NCBI GenBank assembly: GCA_021812785.1
Contig: JAKAMR010000017.1
Coordinates: 1 to 33,306 of the forward strand
DNA length: 33,306 nucleotides
Reading direction: 5' to 3'
Source of the DNA: Nitrospirota bacterium
GTDB taxonomy: Bacteria > Nitrospirota > Thermodesulfovibrionia > Thermodesulfovibrionales > JdFR-88
Under the pieces are notes generated by a model, which had not been told where the DNA came from, ran no database searches, and saw only the letters and a program-made list of their open reading frames with translations. Shown here piece after piece: positions 4,673 to 25,298 of the stretch. The stretch's first letter is position 1; each line of letters begins with the position of its first letter. The position numbers and the translations under genes were made by a program.

Positions 4673-4678
4673 AACAAA

Positions 4679-4712: not shown

Positions 4713-4745
4713 CTGCAGTTTTTTTTTGCGGGCGGGCGGCATTCG

Positions 4746-9444: not shown

Positions 9445-9446
9445 AT

Positions 9447-13030: not shown

Positions 13031-14188
13031 CTAGCCGCGCATGAGAAACTCCATGAACTGGCGTTTTATCTCCAGAGGCCCGAGCGGGATTACCGGGACG
13101 TCCCGGTTGCCGGGCCGGGCGAGCGCGTGTACGAACCTTGGGCCCTTCACCTTTTCCTTAAGCGCACTCACGATATCTTTTTTCCCTGCCGCCACTATCA
13201 CATCGAGTCCAAACCCCTTTGCCATCATGCCCAGGTCGATGCACCCGGCGGCAAACGTGGGCTGGTTGCCGGTAGACCCGTATGCCCCGTTGTCGACCGC
13301 AAAGACCGTCAGGTTCCTGCCTCCGAGGCAGGCGGCGGTGGCCAGGGTGCCAGGGTTCATCAAAAGGCTCCCGTCGCCGTCTATCACGACCACGTCTTTT
13401 GACCTTTTTGAAAGGGCCACCCCAAGGCCGATGGGCGTTGCCATTCCCATGCTGCCAAGCATGTAAAAGTGCGACGGCCTGTGTCCCATGCTGTACAGCT
13501 CTCTCGACGGAAACCCAAGATTGCAGATGACCGCCGCGCCTTCGGTAGCTGGCCAAAGGGCAGAGAGCATCTCATAGCGGTCGAGCCTCCTTGCAGTGCG
13601 TATTTTTACCTTTTGGCTTTCCGGCCCGCCCAAAAACCCATTTTTAATTTTTTTGAATTTTTCCCCGCGCCCGGGTCCGCTTTCTGTTTCCAGACCCGGG
13701 CCTTCCCATATGGCCGGCGACAGGAGGAAGACGTGTATCCTGTTTTCCGAATAGACCTTTTCAAGCATCTCCGGGACAAGCTGCAGTCCGGAAGCGGAAT
13801 CGATAGGCGTAAAACCTATCCCTGCCCCCTCAAGGATGCCAGGCAGCATGAGGCCCATGGGCGCCTGCGCGGCTATCTTCTCTTTATAGATCCCCCTGTG
13901 GCTGGCAAAGACGGCAAGCGGCAGCCCGTAAAAGCCGGTCAGCGACAGGAGGGCATTTATCATGTTGCCGATGCCAGAGTTCTGGATGAACATGGCAGGT
14001 CTTTTGCCGGCAAGCGCCGCTCCGGCGCATATGCCCACGCCTTCTTCCTCCCTGGTAAGCGGGACATGGTAAAACTTCCGGGAAACCAGGCACAAAAGCC
14101 CCTTTATCCTGTCGCAGGGCAGGGTCGCGGTAAAATCCACTCCACCTTCCCGCAGTATGCCCGTCAGTTCTTCTTCAGCGGACCGCAT
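13031..14188 (-). CDS. comDE: Sulfopyruvate decarboxylase, fused alpha and beta subunits (ComDE)
   Basis: This thiamine-diphosphate enzyme decarboxylates sulfopyruvate to sulfoacetaldehyde, the late committed step of coenzyme M synthesis. The 385-residue chain joins the pyrimidine-binding half (ComD; catalytic Glu in TREEEGVGICAGAALAGKRP near residue 49; MFIQNSGIGNMINALLSL at 66-83) to the diphosphate-binding half (ComE, from about residue 203) with GDGS at 271-274, N300 in AVDNGAYGSTGNQPTF and LGSMGMATPIGLGVA. A Pro/Gly/Lys-rich linker at about 163-200 joins them. The fused arrangement is the one known from Methanosarcina. It overlaps the end of the cysteate synthase gene by 14 bp and closes the operon. 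Other ThDP decarboxylases such as phosphonopyruvate decarboxylase share these motifs. The cysteate synthase neighbour is what favours sulfopyruvate. Confidence 0.88.
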   Translation of the reverse strand: MRSAEEELTGILREGGVDFTATLPCDRIKGLLCLVSRKFYHVPLTREEEGVGICAGAALAGKRPAMFIQNSGIGNMINALLSLTGFYGLPLAVFASHRGIYKEKIAAQAPMGLMLPGILEGAGIGFTPIDSASGLQLVPEMLEKVYSENRIHVFLLSPAIWEGPGLETESGPGRGEKFKKIKNGFLGGPESQKVKIRTARRLDRYEMLSALWPATEGAAVICNLGFPSRELYSMGHRPSHFYMLGSMGMATPIGLGVALSKRSKDVVVIDGDGSLLMNPGTLATAACLGGRNLTVFAVDNGAYGSTGNQPTFAAGCIDLGMMAKGFGLDVIVAAGKKDIVSALKEKVKGPRFVHALARPGNRDVPVIPLGPLEIKRQFMEFLMRG

Positions 14189-15437
14189 GACGCAAAAATT
14201 TCTCTATCTCTTTCTCGGATGCGTTCTTCGATATCAGAAGGGGGTTTATCCTCCCGACCGCCATGTCCCTTTTAAGCCGTCTCTCGCCGCCTCCCGTTAT
14301 ATTAAGCAGCACGGGCCCGTCACTGCCTACTGTGCCCTTCTTTGCCGCCTTCAAAAGGGCGGCGGTGGCAACACCGGCCGCAGGCACCAGGTCTATCCCT
14401 TCGGTCTCCTCGAAAATATCCATGGCGGCATAGACCTCGTCATTCGTTATGCCGTACATTGTGCCGCCGGTTGCCTGAAGGGCATCGAACACGCCTCCCA
14501 GCACTCCGTAGGCCGGATACCTGTTTGAGAGGACCCTGGTGGTTGTCTCGCTTATGAAAGCAAAATCCAGGTCCGCCGGATCGATCTCCCGGCTTTTTCT
14601 CATGTAGGCCTTTGTCATGGGAGCAAACGGAAGGTTCTGGGCCAGATGCAGGACAGGCAGGGAACTGCCGTACCGGCCGTCCTTTAAAAACCTTTCGCTC
14701 ATCTCCCAGGCGGCTATCGCCCCTGCACCGCTGCCTACGGCCTGGAAATAATGGCGCGGGAGTGTTCCAATGGTATTTACCGCCTCCAGCATGACTATGC
14801 CAAGCCCGTCCCTCTTGGCGATGTTTTTTACCCCGCCCTCAAAGGGCATTCCCGCCACCAGGGCTATGCGCTTGGCCACGTTTATGGAATCTGAATAATC
14901 CCCGTCCGAGACGGCTATCGTCGGGGCGCTTCCGAATATGCCCTTCTCCTCAAGGTACCACATTTCAGGAAGGCACATGGAGGGCACGACGATGATGGCG
15001 GGAAATCCGGAGGTGGAGGAAAGATGGGCAAAGGCCCTGGCCGTGTTGCCGGCGGAGGCGGCAACCAGGCCCTGCATCCCGTTTTCCATCGCGTTTTGAA
15101 TCACCACCGCTGCCTCGAACTCCTTGAACGTGCAGGTCTGAAGTAGAGCGCCTCTTTCCGGCCAGTAACCGCAAAAACAGATGTACAGCTCGGGGATGCC
15201 CGCCTGCCTTGCAAACCCTTCCGACCGATAGACGGCCGGCCCCGGCTGCTTGAACCCCGGCGAATGGACGGGGAGCCAGTTGAATTTCCAGGCGCCTTCG
15301 CCGGGCCCTCTGGAAGAAAACTCCTTTTCCCTGTATTCGGTCACGAGGAGCGCGTTCACGCAGTGCTCGCAAAAGGCGCAGTACGCGTTTTCAAGCACCT
15401 TGCCGCATTTCCTGCACACAATGTTGAAATGGCTCAT
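14175..15437 (-). CDS. Cysteate synthase (threonine synthase family, PLP)
   Basis: In Methanosarcina this enzyme makes L-cysteate from O-phosphoserine and sulfite, the first step of the coenzyme M route that uses no phosphoenolpyruvate. The 420-residue protein opens with a Cys ribbon (C8, C11, C20, C23), as in archaeal threonine-synthase relatives. The PLP lysine is predicted at K105 in QTCTFKEFEA. SAGNTARAFAHLS at 128-140 forms the phosphate loop. GGVKNIAKRDGLGIVMLEAV, HYFQAVGSGAGAIAAWE, LAQNLPFAPM and the late LLNITGGGERRLK match the cysteate synthase subfamily, including the WLPV and CFCGYWPERGA segments, better than ordinary threonine synthase. It begins 6 bp after the HdrD-like gene. A transaminase to convert cysteate to sulfopyruvate is not in the window and may be a general aspartate aminotransferase. 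Confidence 0.9.
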   Translation of the reverse strand: MSHFNIVCRKCGKVLENAYCAFCEHCVNALLVTEYREKEFSSRGPGEGAWKFNWLPVHSPGFKQPGPAVYRSEGFARQAGIPELYICFCGYWPERGALLQTCTFKEFEAAVVIQNAMENGMQGLVAASAGNTARAFAHLSSTSGFPAIIVVPSMCLPEMWYLEEKGIFGSAPTIAVSDGDYSDSINVAKRIALVAGMPFEGGVKNIAKRDGLGIVMLEAVNTIGTLPRHYFQAVGSGAGAIAAWEMSERFLKDGRYGSSLPVLHLAQNLPFAPMTKAYMRKSREIDPADLDFAFISETTTRVLSNRYPAYGVLGGVFDALQATGGTMYGITNDEVYAAMDIFEETEGIDLVPAAGVATAALLKAAKKGTVGSDGPVLLNITGGGERRLKRDMAVGRINPLLISKNASEKEIEKFLRHAVR

Positions 15438-15443
15438 ATGATT

Positions 15444-16664
15444 TTAAAAAACCTCCGATAGAAGCTCCACCATGTCCACAATGCCGATCCGCCCGCCGCC
15501 GGTCCCTTTATAGCCTTCGAGCGCCGCCCCCGCAATGGAATAACAGGCCGGGCAGCCAAGGACAAGCCTGTCCGCCTCTTTCCGGCAGGCCTCGTCTATG
15601 GCAAGCCTGAATATGGCAAGCGCGTTTTCGCTAAAAACCTTTCTTGCGGCCCCTCCGGCCCCGCAGCAGCGAGAGTTCTGCCTGTTTCTGTCAAACTCAA
15701 GCAGCCGTGCCCCGGGTATCCGGGATAGTATCTTACGCGGCTCCTCCGTTATGCCTATTCCCCTGCTCAGGTAGCAGGGGTCGTGATATATGAGCCTCTC
15801 ATCAAGCGTCCTGGTCACGGACAGCCTGCCCTCCGCGAAAGCCCATTCGATGTGCTGGGAAATATGCCTTATCCCGAAGGGCAGCTTCCTCCCGTAGAAA
15901 GCGGGCCAGTCCTTGGATATCATGTTTACGCAGCAGGGGCATGAGCATACAAGCGTCTCCACCCCTCTTGCCGCATATGCCTCCACAAGCCTTTTTACAA
16001 GCCCTTCGAGCAGTTCAAACTGCCCCGTTATGAAAAGCGGAAAACCGCAGCAGACCTCTTCCTCCGCGAAAAGCATAGTAAAGGGCTCCCCGGCTCTGGA
16101 AAGCGCAAGCACATCGCCACGGACCATGGGCCTTGCCTCATAGGCACCCGTGCACCCGGCATAATAGCCAAGCTTTGCGCTTGCCGCCACTTTTACCTCC
16201 GGGGGAAGCCACGTGGAAAACCTCTCGCCGGCCGGTCTGCCGTAAGGGTTGCCCGTCCTGCTTACCGCCTCAGGAGCATCCTTCTGAGGGCCTACCGGCC
16301 CAAGCCCGCGTTTTACCATCTCCCTGCGGAGCATGGGCCACAACCTCTGGGTATGAATGCCCACCGTGCAGGACTGGCCGCAGGCCCCGCACGTGGTGCA
16401 TTCAAAAACGGCCTTCGTGAAATCCTGAAGCAGCCTTTCATCTATCCTGCCTCCGCCAAAGAGCCACCGCCTCAGGACGCCCGTTTTTTTCATGAACTCC
16501 CTGAAGTTCCTTATCTTCTCGGGCGGGGAGACGGAACGATCTCCGGTCACCTCCTGCACCGGGCAGTACTTCAGGCATTCCCCGCACCGGGTGCATGCGT
16601 CCATCTCCAGGAGCTGTCCGCCGGAAAGGCATCTTGAAAAAGAAGCAGTCTCCAGCCTGCTCAT
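15444..16664 (-). CDS. hdrD: Heterodisulfide reductase HdrD-like Fe-S subunit
   Basis: This is the catalytic subunit of a membrane-associated disulfide reductase. The 406 residues match methanogen HdrD in length. Two 4Fe-4S sites come first (C24, C27, C30, C34 and C89, C92, C95, C99). Two full CCG domains follow: C171, CC205-206 in EEVCCGFPLF and CSCPCC at 240-245; then C297 in HDPCYLSRG, CC333-334 in RCCGAGGAA and CPAC at 371-374. The CCG motifs bind the non-cubane [4Fe-4S] clusters that cleave CoM-S-S-CoB in HdrB and HdrD. DsrK, TmcB and GlpC are relatives with other substrates. The 4-bp overlap with the HdrE-like gene and the cysteate synthase directly downstream support a CoM-containing disulfide as substrate. 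Confidence 0.85.
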   Translation of the reverse strand: MSRLETASFSRCLSGGQLLEMDACTRCGECLKYCPVQEVTGDRSVSPPEKIRNFREFMKKTGVLRRWLFGGGRIDERLLQDFTKAVFECTTCGACGQSCTVGIHTQRLWPMLRREMVKRGLGPVGPQKDAPEAVSRTGNPYGRPAGERFSTWLPPEVKVAASAKLGYYAGCTGAYEARPMVRGDVLALSRAGEPFTMLFAEEEVCCGFPLFITGQFELLEGLVKRLVEAYAARGVETLVCSCPCCVNMISKDWPAFYGRKLPFGIRHISQHIEWAFAEGRLSVTRTLDERLIYHDPCYLSRGIGITEEPRKILSRIPGARLLEFDRNRQNSRCCGAGGAARKVFSENALAIFRLAIDEACRKEADRLVLGCPACYSIAGAALEGYKGTGGGRIGIVDMVELLSEVF

Positions 16665-17395
16665 TGTGCGGTCGAGAAATAACCCCCTTTCACGGACTCC
16701 TCACGCCTCCTTGCCTTGTAAATGGTAAAAGGAGCGGCAAATATATGGGAAGGCAGATAAAGCAAAAGGCAAAGGGCCAGAATGAAATGGGCCAGAAACG
16801 GCGCCTCTCCATGAAAGCCCGCCAGGACGTCCCCAGGTATCGCGCCCGAAAGGAGCGCCTTTGGATCAAGGGCGAACATCATGAACTCCTTCACCGCAAC
16901 CACGTTCGGATAGAAATAAAGGCTAAGGAGTGCGCCCAGGGAGCTTATGATGAAAAATCCCGAAAGAAGAAGATAGTTATACGCAAACATCTGTCTGCCC
17001 CGGTTTGCCACCGCTTTTACCATGAAGATATAAAGGAGTGAAAAGGGCAGGACATATCCCGCGGCCCTGCCCGCAGACTGCATCTGCCAGACAAACTGCG
17101 GCACCGGGGTCAGGAAGTACCTCAGGTGCCTTATGAGCACCAGGATGAGGCTTGCGTGGAAAACCCATTCGCCAAGCCACAGGACCTTGTTCACCCTGAA
17201 GAGCCTCCTTAAAAATATAACGTCCAGGGCCGCGGCCCCTGCATTGCCGCCAACGCGTGGCTGGCCGTGTCCCGGCTTTTCCGCCGAAGGCCCTTTAAGC
17301 CAGCCGGCGAGGTGCGCCGCCGTCCTTATCGCGAACGCCGCATAGACCAGAAGGGCCGCCACCGCCAGAAGGTATAAAAGTATCTCCCCCATCAT
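16661..17395 (-). CDS. hdrE: HdrE/NarI-like membrane cytochrome b subunit
   Basis: The 244-residue integral membrane protein has about five or six hydrophobic segments and should pass electrons from a quinone to the HdrD-like partner. Candidate haem b ligands sit in two helices: FHASLILVLIRHLRY and FLAHFILALCLLLYLPSH, giving two pairs of His spaced as in NarI, DsrM and HdrE. A cytoplasmic loop at residues 34-58 is rich in Gly and Pro. It starts ATGATG, overlapping the upstream small gene by 4 bp, and overlaps the HdrD-like gene by 4 bp, so the two subunits are translationally coupled. In methanogens HdrE takes electrons from methanophenazine. In a bacterium menaquinone would be expected. Confidence 0.85.
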   Translation of the reverse strand: MMGEILLYLLAVAALLVYAAFAIRTAAHLAGWLKGPSAEKPGHGQPRVGGNAGAAALDVIFLRRLFRVNKVLWLGEWVFHASLILVLIRHLRYFLTPVPQFVWQMQSAGRAAGYVLPFSLLYIFMVKAVANRGRQMFAYNYLLLSGFFIISSLGALLSLYFYPNVVAVKEFMMFALDPKALLSGAIPGDVLAGFHGEAPFLAHFILALCLLLYLPSHIFAAPFTIYKARRREESVKGGYFSTAQ

Positions 17396-17706
17396 TTTTC
17401 GAATTTGATGCTTACGTCCCTTGGGAGACAGAAACCGGCCTCCACCTCTACAGCCTTTATTATCCCGCCCGGCACGGGGCAGCCAGGGTGCTTAAGATGT
17501 CTGGCGGCCGCCCTGTATACCGGGTTGTTCAGGAAATCAGTAAAGGCGGCCGCCATCTTGTCCAGCGTGGCTATCTCCTCGCCCAGCTTTTCGAGCATTG
17601 CGCACTGGCTTTCCAGGCGGACAAATATCTTTCTTTCCGGGCCCTTCTCTACGGTTACCGCACACATGAAACCGCACGCGCCTGAATTTATGGTAAGCCT
17701 TGTCAT
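17392..17706 (-). CDS. Small conserved cysteine protein of corrinoid operons
   Basis: This 104-residue protein has no catalytic domain I can name. It starts MTRLTINSGACGFMCAVTVE and has Cys at 11, 15, 35, 75 and 93, which would suit metal or cluster binding or a thiol role. The rest is a mixture of strands and a helix (LEKLGEEIATLDKMAAAFTD). Small proteins of this kind are found beside corrinoid methyltransferase and activator genes, and I believe it belongs to an uncharacterised DUF family of that context. It lies 6 bp after the ASKHA activator gene and overlaps the HdrE-like gene by 4 bp. A role as a metallochaperone or accessory factor to either is an inference. Confidence 0.75.
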   Translation of the reverse strand: MTRLTINSGACGFMCAVTVEKGPERKIFVRLESQCAMLEKLGEEIATLDKMAAAFTDFLNNPVYRAAARHLKHPGCPVPGGIIKAVEVEAGFCLPRDVSIKFEK

Positions 17707-17712
17707 ACGGGA

Positions 17713-19710
17713 TCACCCCTTTATCGCCACATGTGGAGACTCCTTCTCGATAAGCTTTTTCAGGTTCGGGAAGCGGTCTTTCATGTGAGGCAGGTGCATC
17801 GCCTGCATGAACTCCTTCTCGAATGCGGGCTCGATGGCGATCTCCACAAACTCCACCCACCTGGCCCGTTCCTCGGCCTCCTGCCTTTTTAAGTTGCTCA
17901 CGAGCGCCATCCGCGCCCCGTCGCCAGCCGCGTTGCCTACCGCATAAACGTTCTCTATCTCGCAGTCCGGGAACATGCCCAGCGTCATGGCGGACTCCTT
18001 GTCTATGTAGCTGCCAAAGGCACCGGCAAGAAGCACCTTGTCCAGTTTTTCGATCCCCATTTTGTGCATCATGAGCTTTGCTCCCGCGTACAGCGCTCCC
18101 TTGGCAAGCTGGAGAGCCCGGACGTCCGCCTGGGTTATGGTTATATCGGCCCCGATGGACGTCTCCCGCGCCCACGCCAGCACGTACTCGGGTTTCCCCT
18201 CGTGGTCCTTTCTTATCCTTGGGGTTTCCGCGGTCATGTCGAACCTGCCGGATTTGTCTATGATGCCGGCCTTGTACATCCAGGCAATGGCGTCTATGAT
18301 GCCGGAGCCGCAGATGCCCTTGGCGTCTACCTTTTCAATTTCAGTCTGCCACTGCTCCTTGCCTATCACCTTGTAGAGGGGCTCTTTTGTGGCTGGGTCT
18401 ATCCTCACCTTCTCTATCGCGCCCGGGGCGGCGCGCATGCCCATCTTTATCTGCGCTCCCTCAAAGGCGGGCCCGGTGGCGCAGGAAGTGGAGCAGACAC
18501 GCTCCCGGTTGCCAAGCAAAAGCTCGCCGTTAGTGCCTATGTCTATAATCAGGACCTTTTCATCGATGTTGTATGGTTCCATGGCAATGAGGACGCCTAC
18601 ATTGTCCGCTCCCACGAAACCCGCCTCTATGGGAAGGACATAGATATAAGAGCCTGGGTTTATCTTTATCCCCAGGTCCCTGGCCTTGATGTCCAGGCCG
18701 TGCTGTATCGCCGGGATGAAAGGCGAGCGCCCGATGTGCTCCGGGTTGAAGCCCAGGAATATGTGGTGCATGGCAGTGTTGAAGACTATGGTCATGTCCA
18801 CGACCGTCTCGCCCCCGCCCAGGGCCTCGGAGTTCAGGGCGCCGGAATTCCGCGCGTTCGTGATTATGTTTGATATTATCTCGTTCAGCCCCTCTATTAT
18901 CGCACCCTGCATCCTGCGCACCCCATCGGGATTGGTCATGGCATAGGTAATGCGGGACATCACGTCCTCGCCGTAGGGGACCTGCGGGTTCATCATCGAT
19001 TCAGTGGCCACCACTTTTCCGGTGGACAGGTCAGTAAGGTAACCTACGACGGTCGTCGTGCCTACGTCCACGGCAAGCCCGTATGCGGTCTCTATGAAAC
19101 CAGGCTCAAGCTTTATTATCTCACGCCCCTTCCATACGGAGACGGTAACGCACCAGTTGCCTTTTCTTATAGTGTCCTGGAGGTCCTTAAGTACAGGGAA
19201 ATCTATGGACAGGTTTTTCCCGTCAAGCCCGTAATTTTCAGACAGAGCGCCCCTGAGCTTCTCCAGGTCCCCGGTGATGGGCTCGTGGAGGGAGGGTCTT
19301 GCCAGTTCGACAAAATATTTCTTGACGGCCGGGTCTATTGCAATATTTAGCTCCCTTGCCGCTTTTCTGACCACCTGCTTGCCCGCCCTCGATTTTTCCG
19401 GGACAAATATCTTCACATCCCCGTGGGCGCGCGCCGCGCAGGCCAGCCTCATGCCGGGTCCGTCCGAGGGTTTCAGAAATTTCCTCTCAACATCGGTAAG
19501 AGGGGAAAGGTGCTCCATCCTGGAGTCCATGGAGTCCTTTTCGAAAAAGCCCTCCTCCACCCTCACCTTGCATTTGCCGCATGTGCCCTTGCCCCCGCAG
19601 ATGGACTCTATGTCCACTCCCAGGTTCCTTGCGGCATCGAGCAGGTCAGTGCCGTCCGGCACCTCGCCCCTCCTGCCTGAGGGCTGAAAGATAACTCTGT
19701 GCTTCTTCAT
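17713..19710 (-). CDS. ASKHA-domain reductive activator of corrinoid protein, with N-terminal 2Fe-2S ferredoxin domain
   Basis: This protein restores the Co(I) state of a corrinoid methyl carrier after accidental oxidation, using ATP to drive electron transfer. The 665-residue chain opens with a plant-type 2Fe-2S domain (C38, C44, C47 in ICGGKGTCGKCKVRVEEG, and C91 in RLACAARAHGD). A linker and an actin/hexokinase-like (ASKHA, DUF4445) domain follow, with AVDVGTTTVVGYLTDLSTGK and the second phosphate loop VLIIDIGTNGELLLGNRE. A Gly-rich LLAGAFGSYIDKESAMTLG lies near the C-terminus. The 2Fe-2S form is typical of bacterial activators of O-demethylases and CoFeSP, unlike methanogen RamA, whose 4Fe-4S ferredoxin domain is C-terminal. 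The corrinoid protein at 20487-21179 is its likely partner. Confidence 0.92.
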   Translation of the reverse strand: MKKHRVIFQPSGRRGEVPDGTDLLDAARNLGVDIESICGGKGTCGKCKVRVEEGFFEKDSMDSRMEHLSPLTDVERKFLKPSDGPGMRLACAARAHGDVKIFVPEKSRAGKQVVRKAARELNIAIDPAVKKYFVELARPSLHEPITGDLEKLRGALSENYGLDGKNLSIDFPVLKDLQDTIRKGNWCVTVSVWKGREIIKLEPGFIETAYGLAVDVGTTTVVGYLTDLSTGKVVATESMMNPQVPYGEDVMSRITYAMTNPDGVRRMQGAIIEGLNEIISNIITNARNSGALNSEALGGGETVVDMTIVFNTAMHHIFLGFNPEHIGRSPFIPAIQHGLDIKARDLGIKINPGSYIYVLPIEAGFVGADNVGVLIAMEPYNIDEKVLIIDIGTNGELLLGNRERVCSTSCATGPAFEGAQIKMGMRAAPGAIEKVRIDPATKEPLYKVIGKEQWQTEIEKVDAKGICGSGIIDAIAWMYKAGIIDKSGRFDMTAETPRIRKDHEGKPEYVLAWARETSIGADITITQADVRALQLAKGALYAGAKLMMHKMGIEKLDKVLLAGAFGSYIDKESAMTLGMFPDCEIENVYAVGNAAGDGARMALVSNLKRQEAEERARWVEFVEIAIEPAFEKEFMQAMHLPHMKDRFPNLKKLIEKESPHVAIKG

Positions 19711-19761
19711 CCCGCTACCTCCATATAAATAACTTTAAAAAAAGCGCGATCTTTTTTATTT

Positions 19762-20490
19762 TTATTTTTCCGTTTCCCGGGCGGTCTTCCTGCCGTAAGG
19801 GCAGATGCTGATGCAAAGGCCGCAGTTCGGCTTCCCTTTGGTTGCCCTTGCGCGCCCCTTGTGGGCGGCGCATTTGTTGGTTTTGACCAGTTCTATGTAA
19901 GGCTCCCCCCAGGACCAGTCCAGGCCCGCGATAGCATGCGAGGGGCAGAAATCCATGCAGAGTGTGCACTGCCCGCACCGGCTGCATGTGACAGGGGAGT
20001 CTGATTCAAGAGGGGCGTCCGTGAGGACCGTGGCAAGGGAGAGGCGCGGGCCGAATTCAGGGTTTATGAGAAGCCCGTTCCTGCCGATCCAGCCAAGTCC
20101 GGCCAGCGTTGCCGCCATCTTGTGCGTAAGGAGGGGATAGAGCCTGGAGGCAAAGGTATTCCTTATCCGGTCGGAATCCGGCGGAATGCAAAAATATCTG
20201 TATCCGCCGGCCTTAAGCAGTGCCTGGGCTCTTCTTTGAAGGGACATAAGAAGTTTTACCGTCTCTTCATTCAGGTTCTTCACCACCCCTATCGAGACCG
20301 CGTTTTGAAGATGAGCAAGCTCATCGCCAGCCGCACCCTGCACCCACGCAAACCCCACTACGGCGGCCCCCGCTGCAACCAGCTCTGCCTTCAGGGCGGC
20401 CCCCAAAGTTTTTGTTTTTTTCTCCTTCCGGGGTGCGAATTCAAGGAATTTTTTACTCATCGCATCCGCCTTCATTCCAAAAATCTTCAT
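19762..20490 (-). CDS. QueG-like double 4Fe-4S cluster protein
   Basis: This 242-residue protein resembles the C-terminal part of epoxyqueuosine reductase and reductive dehalogenase-like proteins. GLGWIGRNGLLINPEFGPRL at about 131-150 is the family signature. Two 4Fe-4S sites follow: C172, C175, C178 and C182 (CGQCTLCMDFCP), and C207 with C223, C226 and C230 (CGLCISICPYG). It is about two-thirds the length of QueG and lacks that protein's full N-terminal half. The start overlaps the corrinoid gene stop (ATGA). Given the neighbours, it may deliver low-potential electrons to the corrinoid or to the activator, as QueG itself works with cobalamin. Queuosine synthesis is unlikely in this setting. 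Confidence 0.83.
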   Translation of the reverse strand: MKIFGMKADAMSKKFLEFAPRKEKKTKTLGAALKAELVAAGAAVVGFAWVQGAAGDELAHLQNAVSIGVVKNLNEETVKLLMSLQRRAQALLKAGGYRYFCIPPDSDRIRNTFASRLYPLLTHKMAATLAGLGWIGRNGLLINPEFGPRLSLATVLTDAPLESDSPVTCSRCGQCTLCMDFCPSHAIAGLDWSWGEPYIELVKTNKCAAHKGRARATKGKPNCGLCISICPYGRKTARETEK

Positions 20491-21179
20491 CCCTTCTTTC
20501 TTGCTTCGGCCTCTTCCTTCATCTTCTTAAGCGAGCTGACCATGTTGATGGCGTCCTTCAGGGCGTTGTTTGCGTCCTTGGCGTAACCGTCCGCGCCCCA
20601 CTTGCCCGCGATATCGGAGGAAACCGGGGCCCCTCCGATCATGATCTTCACGTTAGGGTTTTTCGCCCTCAGGTCGTCTATTACCTTTTTCATGCCCACC
20701 ATTGTGGTGGTCATCATGGCGGAGAGGCAGACCAGGTCCGAATCGGTTTTTAACTGCTCCTCCACGAACTTGTCCAGGGGGACGTCCCTTCCCAGATCGT
20801 AGACGGTGAAGCCCGCCACATCGAACATCATCTTCACTATGTTCTTGCCAATGTCGTGCACGTCACCCTCGACTGTGCCTATGACGACCGAGCCCTTCAC
20901 CCCGAGGTCAAGCTGTCTCACATGGGGCTTCAGGATGTCGAGGCCCGCATAGAGGGCGTCAGCGGACATGAGCAGCTCTGGCACGAAATACTCCTGCGCC
21001 TCGAAAAGCCTGCCAACCTCCTCCATCCCGCTTACCAGCCCGTTAAAGATGGCGTCATTGGCGTCCATCCCAAGCTCTACCACCTCGTTCGAGGCTTCCT
21101 TGGCCCCGTCCTCGTCATACTGAATGACAGAATTTCTGAGCCTCTCCAAAAGCTCCTGCCTCTTTTCTTCCGTTATCAT
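20487..21179 (-). CDS. Methyltransferase cognate corrinoid protein (MtaC/MtbC/MttC type)
   Basis: This 230-residue methyl carrier binds a cobamide in the base-off, His-on form. Residues 1-90 form the helical cap (YDEDGAKEASNEVVELGMDA, then VPELLMSADALYAGL). The Rossmann B12-binding domain has EGDVHDIGKNIVKMMFDVAG with the axial ligand H108, LVCLSAMMTTTM, and GGAPVSSDIAGKWGADGYAK, which packs on the nucleotide tail. The short charged C-terminus ends in KKMKEEAEARKKG. It overlaps the MtaA-type gene upstream and the QueG-like gene downstream by 4 bp each. It would accept methyl groups from the MtrH-type enzyme and donate them to an MtaA-type enzyme, or the reverse. There is no substrate-specific MtaB or MttB methyltransferase in the operon. 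Confidence 0.94.
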   Translation of the reverse strand: MITEEKRQELLERLRNSVIQYDEDGAKEASNEVVELGMDANDAIFNGLVSGMEEVGRLFEAQEYFVPELLMSADALYAGLDILKPHVRQLDLGVKGSVVIGTVEGDVHDIGKNIVKMMFDVAGFTVYDLGRDVPLDKFVEEQLKTDSDLVCLSAMMTTTMVGMKKVIDDLRAKNPNVKIMIGGAPVSSDIAGKWGADGYAKDANNALKDAINMVSSLKKMKEEAEARKKG

Positions 21180-22216
21180 GCTAGCCTCCTGTAATTGAAA
21201 ACTTCATCCATCATTGCTTTTATGTTCTCTATGGGCACAGTGGGCCAGATGTCGCAGCCCGGCCAGACCGCGTCTACCCCGTCATCCATGCACTTCCTGA
21301 TGGCCTGGCGGACATTGGCCTCGGAGCCGGCCACCAGGATGTTGTACGGGTCATAATTGCCAAACAGAAGCGCACTTCCTATCTTCTTCCTGGTCTCTGC
21401 CACGTCGTTTTTCTGGTCCACGCTGATAGCGGAGGCGCCCGACTCTACCATGAAGGGGGCTATATCGTTTGTCTTTCCGCATATATGAAGGACCGTATTT
21501 GTCCTAAGCTGCCCGAATATCTTTTTAAGATAAGGCAGTATCAGGTTCTTGAACACCCTAGGGGAAAGGACATCGGAGGTGGCCCCCATCTCCCTTACCG
21601 TTATGTAATCGGCCCCGGCCTCCTCGAATTCCTTTGCGCAAAGCACGATGGCATCTGCCAGTATGTCCAGGAGGTTTCCCACCTTCTCGGGCTTCTTGAA
21701 GGAAAGCTTAAGCAGGTCGTTCAGCTCCATTATCTGGCCCGCAAGCGTGAAAGGCCCGAGCACATATGTGCCCACGGCAACGTCACCTCCGATGTCGGCC
21801 TTCACCAGCCCTATTGCCTCCTTCACAAGAGGGATCCTTCCCCTCCGGGTAAAATCCTGGGGTATGCTTATGCCCATCTCATCCTCGTTATGGATTATCT
21901 TCCTTTTGATCGTCGGATAAAGGATATCGTCCAGGTGGGCATAGACGTTTATCTCGCAGCCTAGCGCCTCGGCCTCCACGCAGAGGTCAAACGGCACTAC
22001 ACCGCACTCAAATCCCGTCAGCTTGTATGTGGAGGCGGCCACATCCGCCATCATTTTCGCGTTTGAGTGCAGGGCCGCAAATTTATATCCAAACCTGCCA
22101 AGCCCTTCCGTCGTGGCGTTTCCCATCCCGCTGAAACACGGCGGCCTGTCCACCTTTTCCCCAGCGAAAAGTTTCAGGATCCTTTCTTTTGGCGTCATTG
22201 TCCTCGTCTCTGCCAT
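21176..22216 (-). CDS. Methylcobamide:CoM methyltransferase MtaA-like (UroD family), copy 1
   Basis: This 346-residue TIM-barrel enzyme of the uroporphyrinogen decarboxylase superfamily carries the zinc site of CoM methyltransferases: H244 and C246 in TVLHICGKTNDI and C321 in VWPGCDIWPTVP. These align in spacing with H237, C239 and C316 of methanogen MtaA, where zinc activates the CoM thiol for methyl attack. Real UroD enzymes lack this trio. Other landmarks are MTPKERILKLFAGEKVDRPP at the start, TYVLGPFTLAGQI and YITVREMGATSDVLSP. The ATG at 22216 has AAAGGG upstream, and a second ATG at codon 7 is possible. Its 4-bp overlap with the corrinoid gene makes it the most likely partner. Whether CoM is truly the acceptor is inferred from the CoM synthesis genes in the same operon. 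Confidence 0.9.
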   Translation of the reverse strand: MAETRTMTPKERILKLFAGEKVDRPPCFSGMGNATTEGLGRFGYKFAALHSNAKMMADVAASTYKLTGFECGVVPFDLCVEAEALGCEINVYAHLDDILYPTIKRKIIHNEDEMGISIPQDFTRRGRIPLVKEAIGLVKADIGGDVAVGTYVLGPFTLAGQIMELNDLLKLSFKKPEKVGNLLDILADAIVLCAKEFEEAGADYITVREMGATSDVLSPRVFKNLILPYLKKIFGQLRTNTVLHICGKTNDIAPFMVESGASAISVDQKNDVAETRKKIGSALLFGNYDPYNILVAGSEANVRQAIRKCMDDGVDAVWPGCDIWPTVPIENIKAMMDEVFNYRRLA

Positions 22217-22275
22217 CGGCTTTTTCCCTTTCTGATATGATTTCTTAAAATTTTTCCTTTTTTCTTTTCCCTGTT

Positions 22276-23229
22276 TTATTTCCTGGCCTCCCCGGACAGG
22301 AGCTTCTCTATGAAATCCGGGAAGAATTTTCTTATCGGCAGCTCCCCGCCTGGGGCTATGGAGCCTGTCTCCGCGTACAGAAGAGTGGAAAGCAGGATAT
22401 GCGCGGTGGCCACCGCCGGGAATATCCTCGGTGCCGTTACGATGGGGCCATAAAAATTAAAATCGCTCCAGAGGACGGAGGACATGCCCTGTGCCACAGC
22501 GTCCATCGCCTTGAACCCTTCAAGTCCCCAGACCTCCCTGGACTGCTTCCACATATGGGTGCCGTTTGAGTAGGCCCCGCCGCAGGGCAGCCCCAGTTTC
22601 TCCTTGATGAGCCTGTTCGCCACAAGCGACAGCGACGTGGCAGGCAGGTTCATGACGGAGGTGTCCACTATCACCGTGTCGAAGTCCGCCGCCCCCTGCG
22701 AAAGTATGCCCTCAAGCGACCTGAGCCTGCCCGCCGGGCTCTGGTCCTTGTCATCGAATGCCTGGACAACGACATTCCTGATACCCAGGTCCTTGAGCCT
22801 GGCCACCTGTCCGCTTATGTCCTTGTCCCACGGGGTGATGCTGTTGTAAAGGAATCTATCCTGAACGCCAAGCTTGGCGATATATTCGGTTGCCTTTGCC
22901 CGCTTCTCGGCCACCCACATGTCAATTCCGAAGGGCATGCCGGCGGAGGCCGTCTCCAGAAAGAAATCTATATATATCTTTGCCTCCTCGGGGGTATTGG
23001 CCACCATCGCCACCATCCCCGGTATGCCCGTGGAGCGGGAGAGCTCCTCCTGGTTTTTTATGAGCTCCCTTGCCTTCTGCCTGTCAAAATTGCCTTTTCT
23101 GTCCACCAGTATGCGGTCCTTGTTGTGGAACATGGAGGCTATGAGGACCGGAGGGTTGCTGCCGGCCGGTCCGCCTATCCGGATGCTCCCTATGCTAAAA
23201 ACCTTCTGCGCCGCTTCAAACCCGAACAT
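22276..23229 (-). CDS. mtrH: Methyl-tetrahydropterin:corrinoid methyltransferase (MtrH/MtgA family)
   Basis: This 317-residue TIM-barrel protein is homologous to MtrH, the subunit of methanogen methyl-H4MPT:CoM methyltransferase that moves the methyl group from pterin to corrinoid, and to bacterial MtgA, which does so with tetrahydrofolate. It begins FGFEAAQKVFSIGSIRIGG, then PPVLIASMFHNKDRILVD, YIDFFLETASAGMPFGIDMW and VDTSVMNLPATSLSLVANRL, with a catalytic-face stretch LPCGGAYSNGTHMWK. AAGGAG precedes the ATG at 23229. No other Mtr subunit (MtrA-G) is present, so it must work with the soluble corrinoid protein two genes downstream and cannot pump sodium. Whether the pterin is H4F or H4MPT cannot be told here. 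A bacterium would most likely use H4F. Confidence 0.9.
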   Translation of the reverse strand: MFGFEAAQKVFSIGSIRIGGPAGSNPPVLIASMFHNKDRILVDRKGNFDRQKARELIKNQEELSRSTGIPGMVAMVANTPEEAKIYIDFFLETASAGMPFGIDMWVAEKRAKATEYIAKLGVQDRFLYNSITPWDKDISGQVARLKDLGIRNVVVQAFDDKDQSPAGRLRSLEGILSQGAADFDTVIVDTSVMNLPATSLSLVANRLIKEKLGLPCGGAYSNGTHMWKQSREVWGLEGFKAMDAVAQGMSSVLWSDFNFYGPIVTAPRIFPAVATAHILLSTLLYAETGSIAPGGELPIRKFFPDFIEKLLSGEARK

Positions 23230-23250
23230 GCATTCTCCTTAGGACGGGAA

Positions 23251-23272
23251 GGGCGCGCCTCAAGGCGCGCCC
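23251..23272. repeat. 9-bp GC hairpin inside the operon, before the MtrH-type gene
   Basis: GGGCGCGCC at 23251-23259 pairs perfectly with GGCGCGCCC at 23264-23272 around a 4-nt loop. It lies in the 57-bp gap between the carboxymuconolactone-decarboxylase-like gene and the MtrH-type gene. No T-run follows in the direction of transcription. It may stabilise or divide the polycistronic transcript, or attenuate it. Confidence 0.5.
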
Positions 23273-23286
23273 CCCGCATTTTTTTA

Positions 23287-23733
23287 TTAGAATACCCCGT
23301 GGTCGAACCTGGGCTGGGGCAGATACTCCCATTTTTCGCCCTTCCTGTACTTGGCCTCGATGTCGAGGCATTTCAGCGCGTACTCGAACGCGTAGGGGAT
23401 GCCCGGCCCTCCGGGCACAAACCCGGCCAGTATCATGCCCACGGCCGCGGCCTCGAATATCTCCCCGGTCGTGGCCCCGGCGTTTATCGCGGGCACTACG
23501 TGGATGATGCACCTGGGCGAGCAGTAAGCCACGCCGCCCGACATGAACATGAGCTCCTTGTGTTTCCTCGAAAGGGCGCCGTCTCCGAATATGCTCTCGT
23601 AAAAATCGGCAAACGTCCTGCCCGGCTCAGGCGTTACGGTGTTTATTATCTGGAACATCCTGGGAACGAACCCGCATTTCTGCTTCATGTACTCGTTTAC
23701 TTCTTCGACTGTCATCTTTTTCTGTTCGGCCAT
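23287..23733 (-). CDS. Carboxymuconolactone decarboxylase (AhpD-like) family protein
   Basis: This 148-residue all-helical protein has CMD-family features: RTFADFYESIFGDGALSRKH, then LMFMSGGVAYCSPRCIIHVV with a CxxxC pair (C91 and C95 by my count) and a nearby His, and AINAGATTGEIFEAAAVGMI. AhpD-like members use a CxxC pair for peroxidase or disulfide chemistry. Here the spacing is Cys-Ser-Pro-Arg-Cys, one residue longer, so that activity is uncertain. GGAGGAGGAG precedes the ATG at 23733. It sits between the second MtaA-type gene and the MtrH-type gene with gaps of 136 and 57 bp. A thiol or redox protection role for the corrinoid or thiol cofactor is a guess. The substrate is unknown. Confidence 0.85.
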   Translation of the reverse strand: MAEQKKMTVEEVNEYMKQKCGFVPRMFQIINTVTPEPGRTFADFYESIFGDGALSRKHKELMFMSGGVAYCSPRCIIHVVPAINAGATTGEIFEAAAVGMILAGFVPGGPGIPYAFEYALKCLDIEAKYRKGEKWEYLPQPRFDHGVF

Positions 23734-23747
23734 TTTCTTCTCCTCCT

Positions 23748-23767
23748 CCGGCCTGCCTTGAGGCCGG
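23748..23767. repeat. 7-bp hairpin overlapping the leader of the CMD-family gene
   Basis: CCGGCCT at 23748-23754 pairs perfectly with AGGCCGG at 23761-23767 around a 6-nt loop. In the transcribed strand its 3' arm runs straight into the GGAGGAGG ribosome binding site of the gene at 23287-23733, so it could influence translation or mark an RNA processing point. It is in the largest gap (136 bp) within the operon. Confidence 0.45.
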
Positions 23768-23869
23768 ATCTTTTTCTTTTGCTAAAAGTCTATTCCAGGA
23801 AAGAACCTCGCTTGAAACAAAATAGCTCGAAAGTTCCCTTTCCTCCCCCGCCTGGTCACCTCCTTCCGG

Positions 23870-24898
23870 TCAGTATTTCCATTCCCTTGCGACCTGTATA
23901 AGTTTCTGGATATTTTCGTAAGGCACTGTAGGAGGGATGTCGCAGCCCGGCATAAGGACAAAGCCGCCGTCCGTGCCGACCGTGCTTATTATCCGCCTGC
24001 ACTCCTCCTCCACTTCCTGCACGCTGCCGTTAAGCATTATCTTTACGGGGTCCACATTGCCGCCGAAACACATCTTTCCGTGAAGCACTTCCTTGGCCTT
24101 AACGATGTCCGTCTTGTGGTCCAGGCTTATGCAGCTTGCACCTGTAGCGGGGAAGAGGTCCAGGCGGTCGGTAGTGTTCCCGCAAATGTGCAGGAGGGTA
24201 TGGGCCCCCTTTGACCTGGCCCAGTCTGTAAACTTCTTCAGGTAGGGTAGCGCGAACTTCTCGAACTGCTTCTTCGAGATCAGGTCCCCGGAGGCGGTCG
24301 GATCGGCCAGGCTTATGACCTCCAGCGTCCCGTCCTCAAGCAGGGGCTCATAGAGGCGAATGAGCAGCTGGGTGGCGAAATCCACCACCTTCTCCACAAA
24401 GGCAGGCCTCTTGAAGGTTGCCTTCATCATCGCCTCCTCACCAACGAAGCGCGCCGCCAGGGTGAACGGACCCCAGGCGGTAAGTGTAACGGCATAATTG
24501 TTCCCTATCTTTGTTTTTGCAAGCCTGGTGGCCTCCCTGGTGGCGTCAACCACCTTGTCGCTGTTTATCCTGCTTATGTCCAGTTTTTGAAGGTCTTCCT
24601 CGGAGGCTACCAGAGGGGCTTCAAGGTCCGGCGCCCCTATCTCCCTGAACTTTATCGAGCCGCCAAGGGCCGAGGCATGAAAGTTGTTGTACCCGGAGCC
24701 CGCATAGACTATATCGCAGAGGAGCTTCTCAGACATCGTCACAAGCATGTCGGACATCCGGAGGGCGTCCTCTGAAAGTTCCTGGAAAGAAGACCCGTAA
24801 TGCCTGATGCTCCACATGCCCGCCCCGAAAAGGGTGACGGGCACCCTGTCCGCCCTGCCGCCTTCAAACGCTTTTAAAATAGTCTCCTTTGGTGTCAT
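23870..24898 (-). CDS. Methylcobamide:CoM methyltransferase MtaA-like (UroD family), copy 2
   Basis: This second UroD-superfamily methyltransferase (342 residues) is clearly divergent from copy 1 but keeps the complete zinc trio: H237 and C239 in TLLHICGNTTDRLD and C319 in VLMPGCDIPPTVPYENI. It begins MTPKETILKAFEGGRADRVP, and TLTAWGPFTLAARFVG and VISLADPTASGDLISKKQF are landmarks. The start overlaps the receiver-domain gene by 4 bp (ATGA). Two copies in one operon could serve different methyl acceptors, or act in opposite directions, as MtaA and MtbA do in methanogens. One might instead be a substrate-specific first-step methyltransferase, since some UroD-family enzymes demethylate methoxylated compounds. 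Confidence 0.88.
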   Translation of the reverse strand: MTPKETILKAFEGGRADRVPVTLFGAGMWSIRHYGSSFQELSEDALRMSDMLVTMSEKLLCDIVYAGSGYNNFHASALGGSIKFREIGAPDLEAPLVASEEDLQKLDISRINSDKVVDATREATRLAKTKIGNNYAVTLTAWGPFTLAARFVGEEAMMKATFKRPAFVEKVVDFATQLLIRLYEPLLEDGTLEVISLADPTASGDLISKKQFEKFALPYLKKFTDWARSKGAHTLLHICGNTTDRLDLFPATGASCISLDHKTDIVKAKEVLHGKMCFGGNVDPVKIMLNGSVQEVEEECRRIISTVGTDGGFVLMPGCDIPPTVPYENIQKLIQVAREWKY

Positions 24899-25284
24899 GA
24901 TGCCCCCTGTATTTTTTTTAAAGGAAAAATATCGTCTCCCGCTCCTCCGTCCGCTATCGCGAGGACGGCATGGACTGCCTCCTTGAATTCCTCCAGGTCA
25001 ACCGGCGCTTCGATGTTCACCGCCCCCGAAGAAGCCTTGCCGACAACTATCACTGGCAAGCCCGGCGAAACGGACTTGATCACCCGCACGGCGTCCTCTG
25101 TGGAAAGGCCGAAAGGCCCGGGATCGATAGTCACGAAACTGTAATCCTTGCTGCTTATCATCTGCATGGCCAGGATCAGACGGTCAGCCATGTCCACCTC
25201 ATATCCCTCCTGACGCAGAAGACCGTAGAGACTTTTGGCCAGGACAGGGTCGTGAGTGCAGAAAAGCACGTTTTTATTCTTCAC
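24895..25284 (-). CDS. Stand-alone degenerate response-regulator receiver domain
   Basis: This 129-residue CheY-like domain has no output domain. It begins VLFCTHDPVLAKSLYGLLRQ and places the possible phosphoryl-accepting D54 in FVTIDPGPFG. Only one acidic residue (D12) remains of the usual N-terminal pair, and the conserved Lys before the beta5 Pro is Ala (IEAPVDLEEF), so normal phosphotransfer is doubtful. The frame starts with GTG at 25284, only about 3 nt after the predicted sigma-54 transcription start. Its translation would then be practically leaderless, unless a later GTG (codon 6) is used. It leads the coenzyme M operon and overlaps the next gene by 4 bp. A regulatory or structural role toward the histidine kinase system nearby is possible. 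Confidence 0.72.
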   Translation of the reverse strand: MKNKNVLFCTHDPVLAKSLYGLLRQEGYEVDMADRLILAMQMISSKDYSFVTIDPGPFGLSTEDAVRVIKSVSPGLPVIVVGKASSGAVNIEAPVDLEEFKEAVHAVLAIADGGAGDDIFPLKKIQGAS

Positions 25285-25298
25285 GATATTGAGTTAAA

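What the first reader, a model, noticed from the sequence alone, without database searches (positions are those of the whole stretch)
13031..25284. Apparent bacterial coenzyme M operon: synthesis, methyl loading and disulfide reduction in one transcript
Thirteen same-strand genes, mostly overlapping or a few bp apart, combine cysteate synthase, fused ComDE, HdrD- and HdrE-like subunits, an ASKHA corrinoid activator, a corrinoid protein, an MtrH-type enzyme and two MtaA-type enzymes. Each is recognisable from motifs in the sequence. CoM made by the cysteate/sulfopyruvate route, MtaA-type methyl transfer and membrane HdrDE are known from methanogenic archaea. The bacterial CoM route described in Xanthobacter uses other enzymes. 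The flanking genes (WbaP, Wzm/Wzt, sigma-54 system) point to a bacterium. I infer a CoM-based methyl cycle without methyl-CoM reductase in the window: pterin-CH3 to cobamide to CoM, with a CoM disulfide as electron acceptor or by-product.
Basis: partly seen in the sequence, partly recalled or inferred. Interest (0 to 1): 0.93.

Follow-up and report, generated by a model that had tools for sequence, protein, structure and literature searches.

The report
Bacterial coenzyme M methyl-transfer operon
A gene cluster conserved across largely metagenome-derived Nitrospirota bacteria joins relatives of archaeal coenzyme M synthesis genes to vitamin-B12-linked methyl-transfer genes and a heterodisulfide-reductase-like pair, so these bacteria, in whose checked relatives the methane-forming enzyme was not found, likely use coenzyme M as a methyl carrier.

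Summary
In detail: 13 minus-strand genes (25284 to 13031) form one likely transcription unit. The host is a Nitrospirota bacterium, most likely Thermodesulfovibrionales; the gene order recurs in tens of related records, so the contig is neither archaeal nor chimeric. Cysteate synthase clears its cut-off (460.7 vs 324.9 bits); it and ComDE group with archaeal CoM-biosynthesis enzymes, apart from threonine synthase and phosphonopyruvate decarboxylase. Of 61 genomes of the order, 23 have cysteate synthase and all 23 carry the MtaA2 orthologue; 1 of the other 38 does. In two genomes the CoM genes and the methyl genes lie at separate loci, yet both are kept. An exact sigma-54 promoter precedes the operon; 19 of 25 relatives have one. 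Open: no known CoM synthase (MMP16 0 of 23), no McrA (0 of 23), MtaA1 under family cut-offs, CoM-site conservation partial, one genome with the methyl module but no cysteate synthase, direction inferred. I favour methylated thiol to corrinoid/CoM to tetrahydrofolate, with a CoM disulfide linked to quinone.

The parts
25298..25313 (-). sigma-54 (-24/-12) promoter TGGCACGCCTGTTGCT just upstream of the operon
   Evidence: 0 mismatches to the recalled consensus TGGCAC-N5-TTGCW, the only exact match among 12 with up to 2 mismatches; 19 of 25 relatives have a match with at most 1 mismatch upstream of MtaA1 against 2.2% of 3000 control windows
24895..25284 (-). degenerate response-regulator receiver protein (RR)
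   Evidence: Response_reg 20.4 bits, under the 30.2 cut-off; found in 11 of 75 loci by similarity
23870..24898 (-). MtaA1: UroD-family methyltransferase with His-Cys-Cys Zn site
   Evidence: URO-D 206.6 bits; TIGR01463 189.5 under cut-off; H237, C239, C319 in 10 of 10
23287..23733 (-). AhpD/CMD-like protein, 66-98% identical in the relatives read
   Evidence: CMD 29.8 bits, cut-off 23; identities; C75 and H78 38 of 38; 595 proteins at E 0.001 among 618 candidates
22276..23229 (-). MtrH/MtgA-type methyl-pterin:corrinoid methyltransferase
   Evidence: NF002142 325.7 bits over cut-off 287; PDB hits MtrH 8z9u and methylcorrinoid:tetrahydrofolate methyltransferase 6sj8
21176..22216 (-). MtaA2: soluble CoM-methyltransferase-like protein
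   Evidence: NF004889 282.7 over 244; best solved structure is 4ay7, methylcobalamin:CoM methyltransferase, 183 bits against 45.5 for the best UroD; H244, C246, C321 in 13 of 13; tree
20487..21179 (-). corrinoid protein (MtC), D-x-H motif intact
   Evidence: B12-binding and B12-binding_2; D106, H108, D109 50 of 50
19762..20490 (-). small QueG/reductive-dehalogenase-like protein, likely B12 and 4Fe-4S, likely corrinoid reductase
   Evidence: AlphaFold model pLDDT 81, Foldseek QueG E 2.9e-9, also reductive dehalogenases and MMACHC
17713..19710 (-). RACo: ATP-dependent corrinoid activase
   Evidence: RACo_C_ter 330.8, Raco_middle, linker, Fer2
17392..17706 (-). DUF6951, weakly IscU/SufE-like predicted fold with invariant C11, C35, H73, C76
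16661..17395 (-). HdrE-like membrane cytochrome b, four invariant His (H80, H90, H203, H217)
   Evidence: weak DsrM match; 54 of 54 His conservation and hydrophobic segments
15444..16664 (-). HdrD-like catalytic subunit: two 4Fe-4S and two Hdr-type cysteine sites
   Evidence: CCG 83.8 bits; C171-X33-CC-X35-C242XXC245 and C297-X35-CC-X36-C371XXC374, 65 of 65
14175..15437 (-). cysteate synthase
   Evidence: TIGR03844 460.7 bits; tree with archaeal cysteate synthases 100/99
13031..14188 (-). fused ComDE, sulfopyruvate decarboxylase
   Evidence: TIGR03845/TIGR03846; tree with archaeal ComDE 100/100 against phosphonopyruvate decarboxylases
12391..13008 (+). orf205, no known family, convergent to the operon
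   Evidence: found in 23 of 75 loci; association only
11047..12207 (+). NMT1/SsuA-type sulfonate-binding-like protein, no evident signal peptide by reading
   Evidence: SsuA_fam 83.4 bits, under 163.5; beside ComDE in 16 of 75 loci (the 18 counted there include transporter proteins of L083 and L089); association only
26258..27607 (-). NtrC-type sigma-54 activator, candidate regulator of the operon
   Evidence: Sigma54_activat 227.3 bits, receiver, Fis HTH; regulatory link inferred from position and promoter
27604..29688 (-). GAF/PAS histidine kinase, likely partner

Best explanation
The operon encodes cysteate synthase and ComDE of the archaeal CoM route beside a corrinoid methyl-transfer module (two MtaA-type methyltransferases, corrinoid protein, MtrH, RACo) and an HdrDE-like pair, and likely lets Nitrospirota, in whose checked relatives no methyl-CoM reductase was found, make CoM and use it as a methyl carrier. 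Proposed cycle (each reaction inferred from family membership): phosphoserine plus sulfite gives cysteate, an aminotransferase gives sulfopyruvate, ComDE gives sulfoacetaldehyde, and an unidentified step or free sulfide gives CoM. [quoted passage not shown] the other exchanges methyl between the corrinoid and CoM; MtrH passes it to tetrahydrofolate, where FolD and the Wood-Ljungdahl enzymes oxidise or assimilate it. RACo and the QueG-like protein, perhaps with DUF6951, keep the corrinoid active. HdrD/HdrE would exchange electrons between a CoM disulfide and membrane quinone. A sigma-54 promoter with the adjacent NtrC/kinase pair would make the pathway inducible. Shown: genes, order, conservation, trees, cysteine and zinc-ligand motifs, co-occurrence, promoter sequence. 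Inferred: CoM as product and substrate, direction, disulfide partner, regulator-promoter link.
For: Family scores. Cysteate synthase tree: bacterial and archaeal cysteate synthases form one clade (100/99) apart from threonine-synthase-like proteins. ComDE tree: bacterial with archaeal ComDE (100/100) apart from 12 phosphonopyruvate decarboxylases of the same phylum. In 9 of 13 archaeal regions read, cysteate synthase and ComDE (or ComD and ComE) are adjacent in the same order; in two they are about 2 kb apart, in two no ComDE was seen. Coupling: MtaA2 orthologue (65% identity or more) in 23 of 23 cysteate-synthase genomes and 1 of 38 without it (Fisher p 6e-16, relatedness not corrected); DUF6951 in the same 24; families f1, f6, f7, f8 and f13 each hold genomes with and without the set, always together. 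In G015 and G027 the cs-comDE pair lies away from the methyl module, other genes following each, and both are kept. Of 45 loci with 10 kb upstream: RACo 44, MtaA2 43, corrinoid protein 43, DUF6951 43, HdrD 43, ComDE 43, MtrH 40, QueG-like 40, HdrE 37, CMD 36, MtaA1 33. His-Cys-Cys Zn sites in both MtaA proteins, as in S-methyltransferases of this superfamily (PMC10418091, Results read). MtaA2 on the archaeal SCMT side of the tree (100/98). HdrD: both Hdr-type sites 65 of 65. FolD inside the operon in 10 of 75 loci; CODH/ACS in 60 of 61 genomes, with or without the operon. SsuABC-type transporter inside the operon in L083, L089, L100; M. acetivorans has a CoM-specific ssu transporter (PMC12068725, passages). 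Sigma-54 promoter.
Against: MMP16, the primary CoM synthase of M. acetivorans, is over cut-off in 0 of 23 cysteate-synthase genomes; their best matches are under 36 bits and, as far as listed, in the ferredoxin part, so no COG1900 relative either, although in MCR archaea MMP16 correlates strongly with sulfoacetaldehyde genes (PMC12068725, section 6). ComDE beta is just under its cut-off. MtaA1 is under every SCMT cut-off and MtaA2 under the MtaA and MtbA equivalog cut-offs. Of 72 columns conserved in 14 archaeal SCMTs MtaA2 keeps 37 and MtaA1 32. G056 has the methyl module up to DUF6951 with no HdrED, cysteate synthase or ComDE in the next 7 kb and no cysteate synthase over cut-off, so the module may work without CoM, unless CoM is imported or the 91%-complete genome misses genes. 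No methyl-CoM consumer was found (McrA 0 of 23). HdrE is weakly assigned. The MtaA tree has long-branch warnings and no Mlp references. The promoter was not found (2 or more mismatches) in 6 of 25 relatives.
Confidence: 0.5

Rival explanations
1. The methyltransferases do not use CoM: MtaA1/MtaA2 handle sulfide, methanethiol, dimethyl sulfide or methyl-selenium compounds as proposed for type 1 mlp gene clusters, while cysteate synthase and ComDE make sulfoacetaldehyde for another sulfonate (taurine, isethionate) or CoM only as a redox buffer.
For: MMP16 over cut-off in 0 of 23; partial conservation of SCMT columns; G056 keeps the methyl module without cysteate synthase; C. ljungdahlii Mlp2 methylates selenide (PMC10418091, Results read); CoM protects methanogens against oxidants (PMC12713407, passages).
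Against: Near-perfect co-occurrence of cysteate synthase with the methyl module, also where the loci are split; HdrD lies directly before cysteate synthase in most loci; Xsc, for a dissimilatory route, is over cut-off in 0 of 61 genomes.
Confidence: 0.27
2. Same parts, opposite flow: methyl-tetrahydrofolate from CO2 is moved by MtrH to the corrinoid and by MtaA to CoM, and methyl-CoM (or methanethiol made from it) is an electron sink; HdrDE reduces the resulting disulfide with quinol, an MCR-free analogue of the end of methanogenesis.
For: Methyl transfer from pterin to CoM is exergonic in methanogens (recalled); MtrH with MtaA and a corrinoid protein could form a soluble bypass of the Mtr complex (inference); HdrD has both cysteine sites; CODH/ACS in 60 of 61 genomes, with or without the operon.
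Against: No enzyme that releases methyl from methyl-CoM was found (McrA 0 of 23; others not searched); the conserved sigma-54 promoter looks more like an inducible catabolic pathway (judgement).
Confidence: 0.18
3. CoM here serves alkyl or alkene chemistry (longer thioethers) rather than methyl transfer.
For: Cysteate synthase and ComDE homologues occur in an Alkanophaga archaeon.
Against: No McrA-type gene in 23 of 23; operon content points to methyl transfer (MtrH, FolD in 10 of 75 loci).
Confidence: 0.03

Closest known systems
Type 2 (phosphoserine/cysteate) CoM biosynthesis of Methanosarcina, cs-comDE-MMP16 (MA3297-3299)
   Same: Cysteate synthase and fused ComDE in the same order as in most archaeal regions read; each groups with the archaeal enzymes.
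   Different: Bacterial host; MMP16 over cut-off in 0 of 23 genomes; gene pair embedded in a methyl-transfer operon.
Soluble CoM methyltransferases MtaA/MtbA/MtsA with MtaC-type corrinoid proteins
   Same: UroD fold, His-Cys-Cys Zn site, corrinoid partner.
   Different: 24-34% identity of MtaA2 to the archaeal proteins over the NF004889 cut-off; no MtaB/MttB-type substrate methyltransferase in the operon; partner MtrH, and FolD in some loci, point to tetrahydrofolate.
Type 1 mlp gene clusters of anaerobes (Kountz and Balskus, PMC10418091)
   Same: Several MtaA-like proteins with a corrinoid protein and a RACo/Ram activase.
   Different: The clusters described there lack a tetrahydrofolate methylase and lack conserved synteny; the text holds no 'cysteate' or 'Nitrospir', and heterodisulfide reductase only in the introduction as another example. 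Here MtrH, cs-comDE and HdrED are built in and gene order is conserved.
HdrDE of Methanosarcina and DsrMK of sulfate reducers
   Same: HdrD has two Hdr-type cysteine sites; HdrE is a b-cytochrome-like membrane protein.
   Different: Substrate unknown, coenzyme B genes not searched; HdrE only weakly DsrM-like.
Bacterial CoM pathway of Xanthobacter autotrophicus Py2
   Same: A bacterium making CoM.
   Different: Starts from phosphoenolpyruvate and is distinct from the archaeal routes (PMC12068725 and PMC12713407, passages); serves alkene catabolism, not methyl transfer.

Membership tests
Type 2 CoM biosynthesis | cysteate synthase | tested here: met
   460.7 bits over 324.9; tree 100/99 with archaeal enzymes
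Type 2 CoM biosynthesis | sulfopyruvate decarboxylase ComDE | tested here: met
   alpha over cut-off, beta 8 bits under; tree 100/100 with archaeal ComDE, apart from phosphonopyruvate decarboxylases
Type 2 CoM biosynthesis | CoM synthase MMP16 (ComF) | tested here: not met
   0 of 23 cysteate-synthase genomes over cut-off; of 61 only G056, which lacks cysteate synthase
Type 2 CoM biosynthesis | aminotransferase from cysteate to sulfopyruvate | not tested
   non-specific enzyme in M. acetivorans (PMC12068725, passages), no diagnostic family
Soluble CoM methyltransferase (SCMT) | UroD family with His-Cys-Cys Zn ligands | tested here: met
   MtaA1 10 of 10, MtaA2 13 of 13 rows
Soluble CoM methyltransferase (SCMT) | curated subfamily cut-off NF004889/TIGR01463 | tested here: inconclusive
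   MtaA2 over both, MtaA1 under both; both under MtaA and MtbA equivalog cut-offs
Soluble CoM methyltransferase (SCMT) | CoM-binding pocket | tested here: inconclusive
   37 and 32 of 72 archaeal-conserved columns kept; which residues bind CoM is not known to me from any call
Soluble CoM methyltransferase (SCMT) | methylates CoM | not testable with these tools
   needs assay
Type 1 mlp gene cluster | Mlp2 and Mlp3 orthologues | not tested
   no reference sequences were fetched
Type 1 mlp gene cluster | corrinoid protein and RACo activase | tested here: met
HdrDE-type disulfide reductase | two CX31-39CCX35-36CXXC sites in HdrD | tested here: met
   spacings 33/35 and 35/36, 65 of 65; spacing rule recalled
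HdrDE-type disulfide reductase | membrane cytochrome b partner | tested here: met
   hydrophobic segments and four invariant His, 54 of 54; family match only weak
HdrDE-type disulfide reductase | CoM-S-S-CoB as substrate | not testable with these tools
   needs assay; coenzyme B genes not searched
Methanogenesis / alkyl-CoM reductase system | McrA | tested here: not met
   PF02249 0 of 23
IscU/SufE family (DUF6951) | IscU/SufE fold | tested here: inconclusive

The most novel reading that the evidence does not exclude
Thermodesulfovibrionales run an MCR-free CoM metabolism: they make CoM by the archaeal cysteate route with an unknown bacterial CoM synthase, shuttle methyl groups between methylated thiols, a corrinoid protein, CoM and tetrahydrofolate, and cycle a CoM disulfide against the quinone pool through an HdrDE complex, all under sigma-54 control.
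Probability: 0.38. Interest if true: 0.9.

Novelty: new variant of a known kind. Interest (0 to 1): 0.8.

Why it matters
CoM is treated as a cofactor of methane and alkane archaea, with one bacterial alkene pathway that makes it by another route (PMC12068725, passages). If this operon does what it seems to, Nitrospirota whose class includes putative sulfate reducers (PMC11631310, passages) use CoM for methyl transfer without methyl-CoM reductase. CoM-synthesis and mtaA-like genes would then not mark methanogens, a new CoM synthase awaits discovery, and how CoM use arose beside methanogenesis becomes testable.

Tried and rejected
Threonine-synthase or phosphonopyruvate-decarboxylase identity: rejected by scores and trees. 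Archaeal or chimeric contig: rejected. Methanogenesis or alkane activation: no McrA in 23 of 23. Sulfoacetaldehyde dissimilation by Xsc: 50 of 61 genomes have a match at E 1e-100, but at about 340-370 bits, far under the 676.4 cut-off; probably paralogues such as acetolactate synthase (judgement). MMP16 in G056 as proof of a substitute CoM route: looked at; its neighbours (by reading, names recalled: 2-oxoacid oxidoreductase, UPF0280, tripartite transporter) leave it ambiguous. DUF6951 as sulfur donor of the missing CoM-synthase step: possible, but it stays with RACo in G056 without cysteate synthase, a weak match (34 bits) lies by RACo in archaeal L251, and the family occurs in M. acetivorans, so service to the activase is as likely. 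CoM-site test by residue identity: not decisive. A family absent's list is not excluded. Literature searches over openly licensed PMC papers listed no description of this operon that I recognised; the Xanthobacter pathway paper and the MtaA structure paper were not held, so absence from print is not proven.

First MtaA tree wrongly took antisense ORFs for L141, L142 and L154; it was discarded and rebuilt. A first promoter scan (4 of 7 loci with at most one mismatch, plus L273 and L274 both positive) was replaced (40 loci given, 25 with enough upstream sequence, 15 too short).


Full report
What is there. The window holds 13 minus-strand genes from 25284 down to 13031, with junctions from -14 to +136 bp: a degenerate receiver protein, MtaA1, an AhpD/CMD-like protein, MtrH, MtaA2, corrinoid protein MtC, a QueG/RDH-like protein, RACo, DUF6951, HdrE-like, HdrD-like, cysteate synthase and fused ComDE. 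Thirteen bases upstream of the first start codon ends TGGCACGCCTGTTGCT, the only exact match of the window to the sigma-54 consensus. Of 40 loci of relatives given to a scan, 25 had at least 400 bases upstream of MtaA1; 19 of these have a match with at most one mismatch (9 of them none), mostly about 400 bases before MtaA1 and near the start of the receiver gene; 6 do not; 2.2% (0.5%) of 3000 control windows reach this. An NtrC-type activator and a GAF/PAS kinase are encoded nearby (26258-29688).

Whose DNA it is. The window's assembly is not held; the nearest genome G001 shares 93% of sampled words, and three of its contigs match most of the operon at 100% identity. The scan used two peptide patterns, so more distant holders would be missed. 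Among the 120 CMD proteins listed, one is named Anaerolineae. So the host is a Nitrospirota bacterium, most likely of that order.

Conservation. Of 45 loci with 10 kb upstream of cysteate synthase (the two archaeal ones left out), RACo is found in 44, MtaA2, MtC, DUF6951, HdrD and ComDE in 43 each, MtrH and QueG-like in 40, HdrE 37, CMD 36, MtaA1 33; 22 of 45 show all twelve. Some 'missing' genes are at the locus edge or lost to my simple ORF picker, so these are lower bounds. L098 and L100 lack most of the module next to the pair. A FolD gene (Pfam on the L052 copy) lies between DUF6951 and HdrD in 10 of 75 loci, and a binding protein, permease and ATPase of the sulfonate type (Pfam on L100) lie inside the operon in L083, L089 and L100.

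CoM precursor enzymes. Cysteate synthase scores 460.7 bits (cut-off 324.9). Tree rows: 18 bacterial, 13 archaeal, 8 threonine-synthase-like; bacterial and archaeal cysteate synthases form a 100/99 clade, bacterial ones a side of their own (88/89). ComDE: 17 bacterial, 11 archaeal, 12 phosphonopyruvate decarboxylases from Nitrospirota genomes; ComDE proteins separate at 100/100. In a sample of 198 genomes of the phylum, 17 have a phosphonopyruvate decarboxylase over cut-off (fifteen at 472-500 bits, one at 404, one at 318), while fused ComDE-type proteins score about 186-222 bits on that model. In 9 of 13 archaeal regions read the two genes are adjacent, in two about 2 kb apart, in two no ComDE was seen.

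Coupling test. Among 61 genomes of the order, 23 have cysteate synthase over cut-off, the next best match at 134.8 bits. All 23 have an MtaA2 orthologue at 65% identity or more; of the other 38 only G056 does. DUF6951 marks the same 24. Families f1, f6, f7, f8 and f13 each contain genomes with and without the set. Linkage: in most of the 23 the genes are contiguous or cut by contig ends. In G015 and G027 the methyl module runs to HdrD and then to other genes, while cs-comDE sits on another contig with other neighbours: the link survives without linkage. G056 is the exception: its module stops after DUF6951 on a 49.8 kb contig, with no HdrED, cysteate synthase or ComDE in the next 7 kb, and it is the only one of 61 with MMP16 over cut-off, in a different cluster. 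I cannot tell loss, import or assembly gap.

Methyl module. Both MtaA proteins keep the His-Cys-Cys zinc site typical of thiol (or selenol) methyltransferases (PMC10418091). MtaA2 is nearest in solved structures to 4ay7 (183 bits) and falls on the archaeal SCMT side of a 56-row tree (100/98), MtaA1 on the other side with archaeal proteins under the cut-off; long branches meet there, so the exact place is unsure. Of 72 columns at least 92% conserved in 14 archaeal SCMTs, MtaA2 keeps 37 and MtaA1 32: CoM use is not shown by sequence. MtrH resembles MtrH and a methylcorrinoid:tetrahydrofolate methyltransferase. With FolD in the operon of some relatives and CODH/ACS in 60 of 61 genomes the pterin is likely tetrahydrofolate.

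Disulfide chemistry and helpers. HdrD has two complete Hdr-type cysteine sites (33/35 and 35/36 spacings), invariant in 65 of 65; HdrE has four invariant histidines in 54 of 54. The QueG-like protein models as a small QueG/RDH/MMACHC-type protein (Foldseek E 2.9e-9). DUF6951 models well (pLDDT 90.5) and its weak best matches are IscU/SufE-type; C11, C35, H73 and C76 are invariant in 59 of 59. It may serve Fe-S or sulfur transfer to RACo, HdrD or the missing CoM-synthase step.

What speaks against CoM. MMP16 is over cut-off in 0 of 23 and no COG1900-like match was seen. In M. acetivorans an MMP16 mutant still grew without CoM when sulfide was given (PMC12068725, passages), so sulfide-rich bacteria may not need it; this is inference. 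No consumer of methyl-CoM was found; McrA 0 of 23. Xsc over cut-off in 0 of 61 weakens one dissimilatory fate of sulfoacetaldehyde.

Mechanism. I commit to CoM as methyl carrier between a methylated thiol, the corrinoid protein and tetrahydrofolate, with HdrDE linking a CoM disulfide to quinone, induced through sigma-54. The reverse flow and a CoM-free variant are the main rivals.

Literature. Read: PMC10418091 (abstract, passages, Results, Discussion), PMC12068725 (passages and section 6), PMC12713407, PMC11631310 and PMC7325909 (passages); other papers only as search listings. PMC12068725 counts three CoM routes, the bacterial one worked out in Xanthobacter. Ten searches listed no description of this operon that I recognised, within openly licensed papers.

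Noticed in passing
   Followed up: partly
L235 (G056 contig 95, 1-16000): MMP16 over its cut-off and a second MMP16-like gene in a bacterium without cysteate synthase, amid oxidoreductase- and tripartite-transporter-like genes (by reading).
   Followed up: partly
11047-12207 (+): SsuA/NMT1-like protein without an evident signal peptide, beside ComDE in 16 of 75 loci; could be a cytosolic enzyme or sensor rather than a transporter part.
   Followed up: no
23287-23733 (-): The CMD/AhpD-like protein (66-98% identity) is generally more conserved than cysteate synthase and ComDE and belongs to a small family (595 proteins), one of the 120 listed from an Anaerolineae record.
   Followed up: partly
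L104: The operon occurs in a Thermoleophilia (Actinomycetota) MAG, either by gene transfer or misbinning.
   Followed up: no
family f24 and f27 genomes: Split alpha/beta ComD/ComE-like or phosphonopyruvate-decarboxylase-like pairs in other families of the phylum, function unknown.
   Followed up: no
29739-30728 and 32654-33289 (-): Proteins with several CXXCH motifs (by reading), likely multihaem cytochromes, upstream of the regulator genes.
   Followed up: no
1399-10661 (-): Polysaccharide export and glycosyltransferase-like genes (by reading) flank the operon.
   Followed up: no
L249, L251, L252 (archaeal genomes G089, G101, G071): Archaeal MtaA-like genes beside RACo (L249, L251) or a corrinoid protein (L249, L252), with a DUF6951-like gene next to RACo in L251; no cysteate synthase match in these genomes.
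   Followed up: partly
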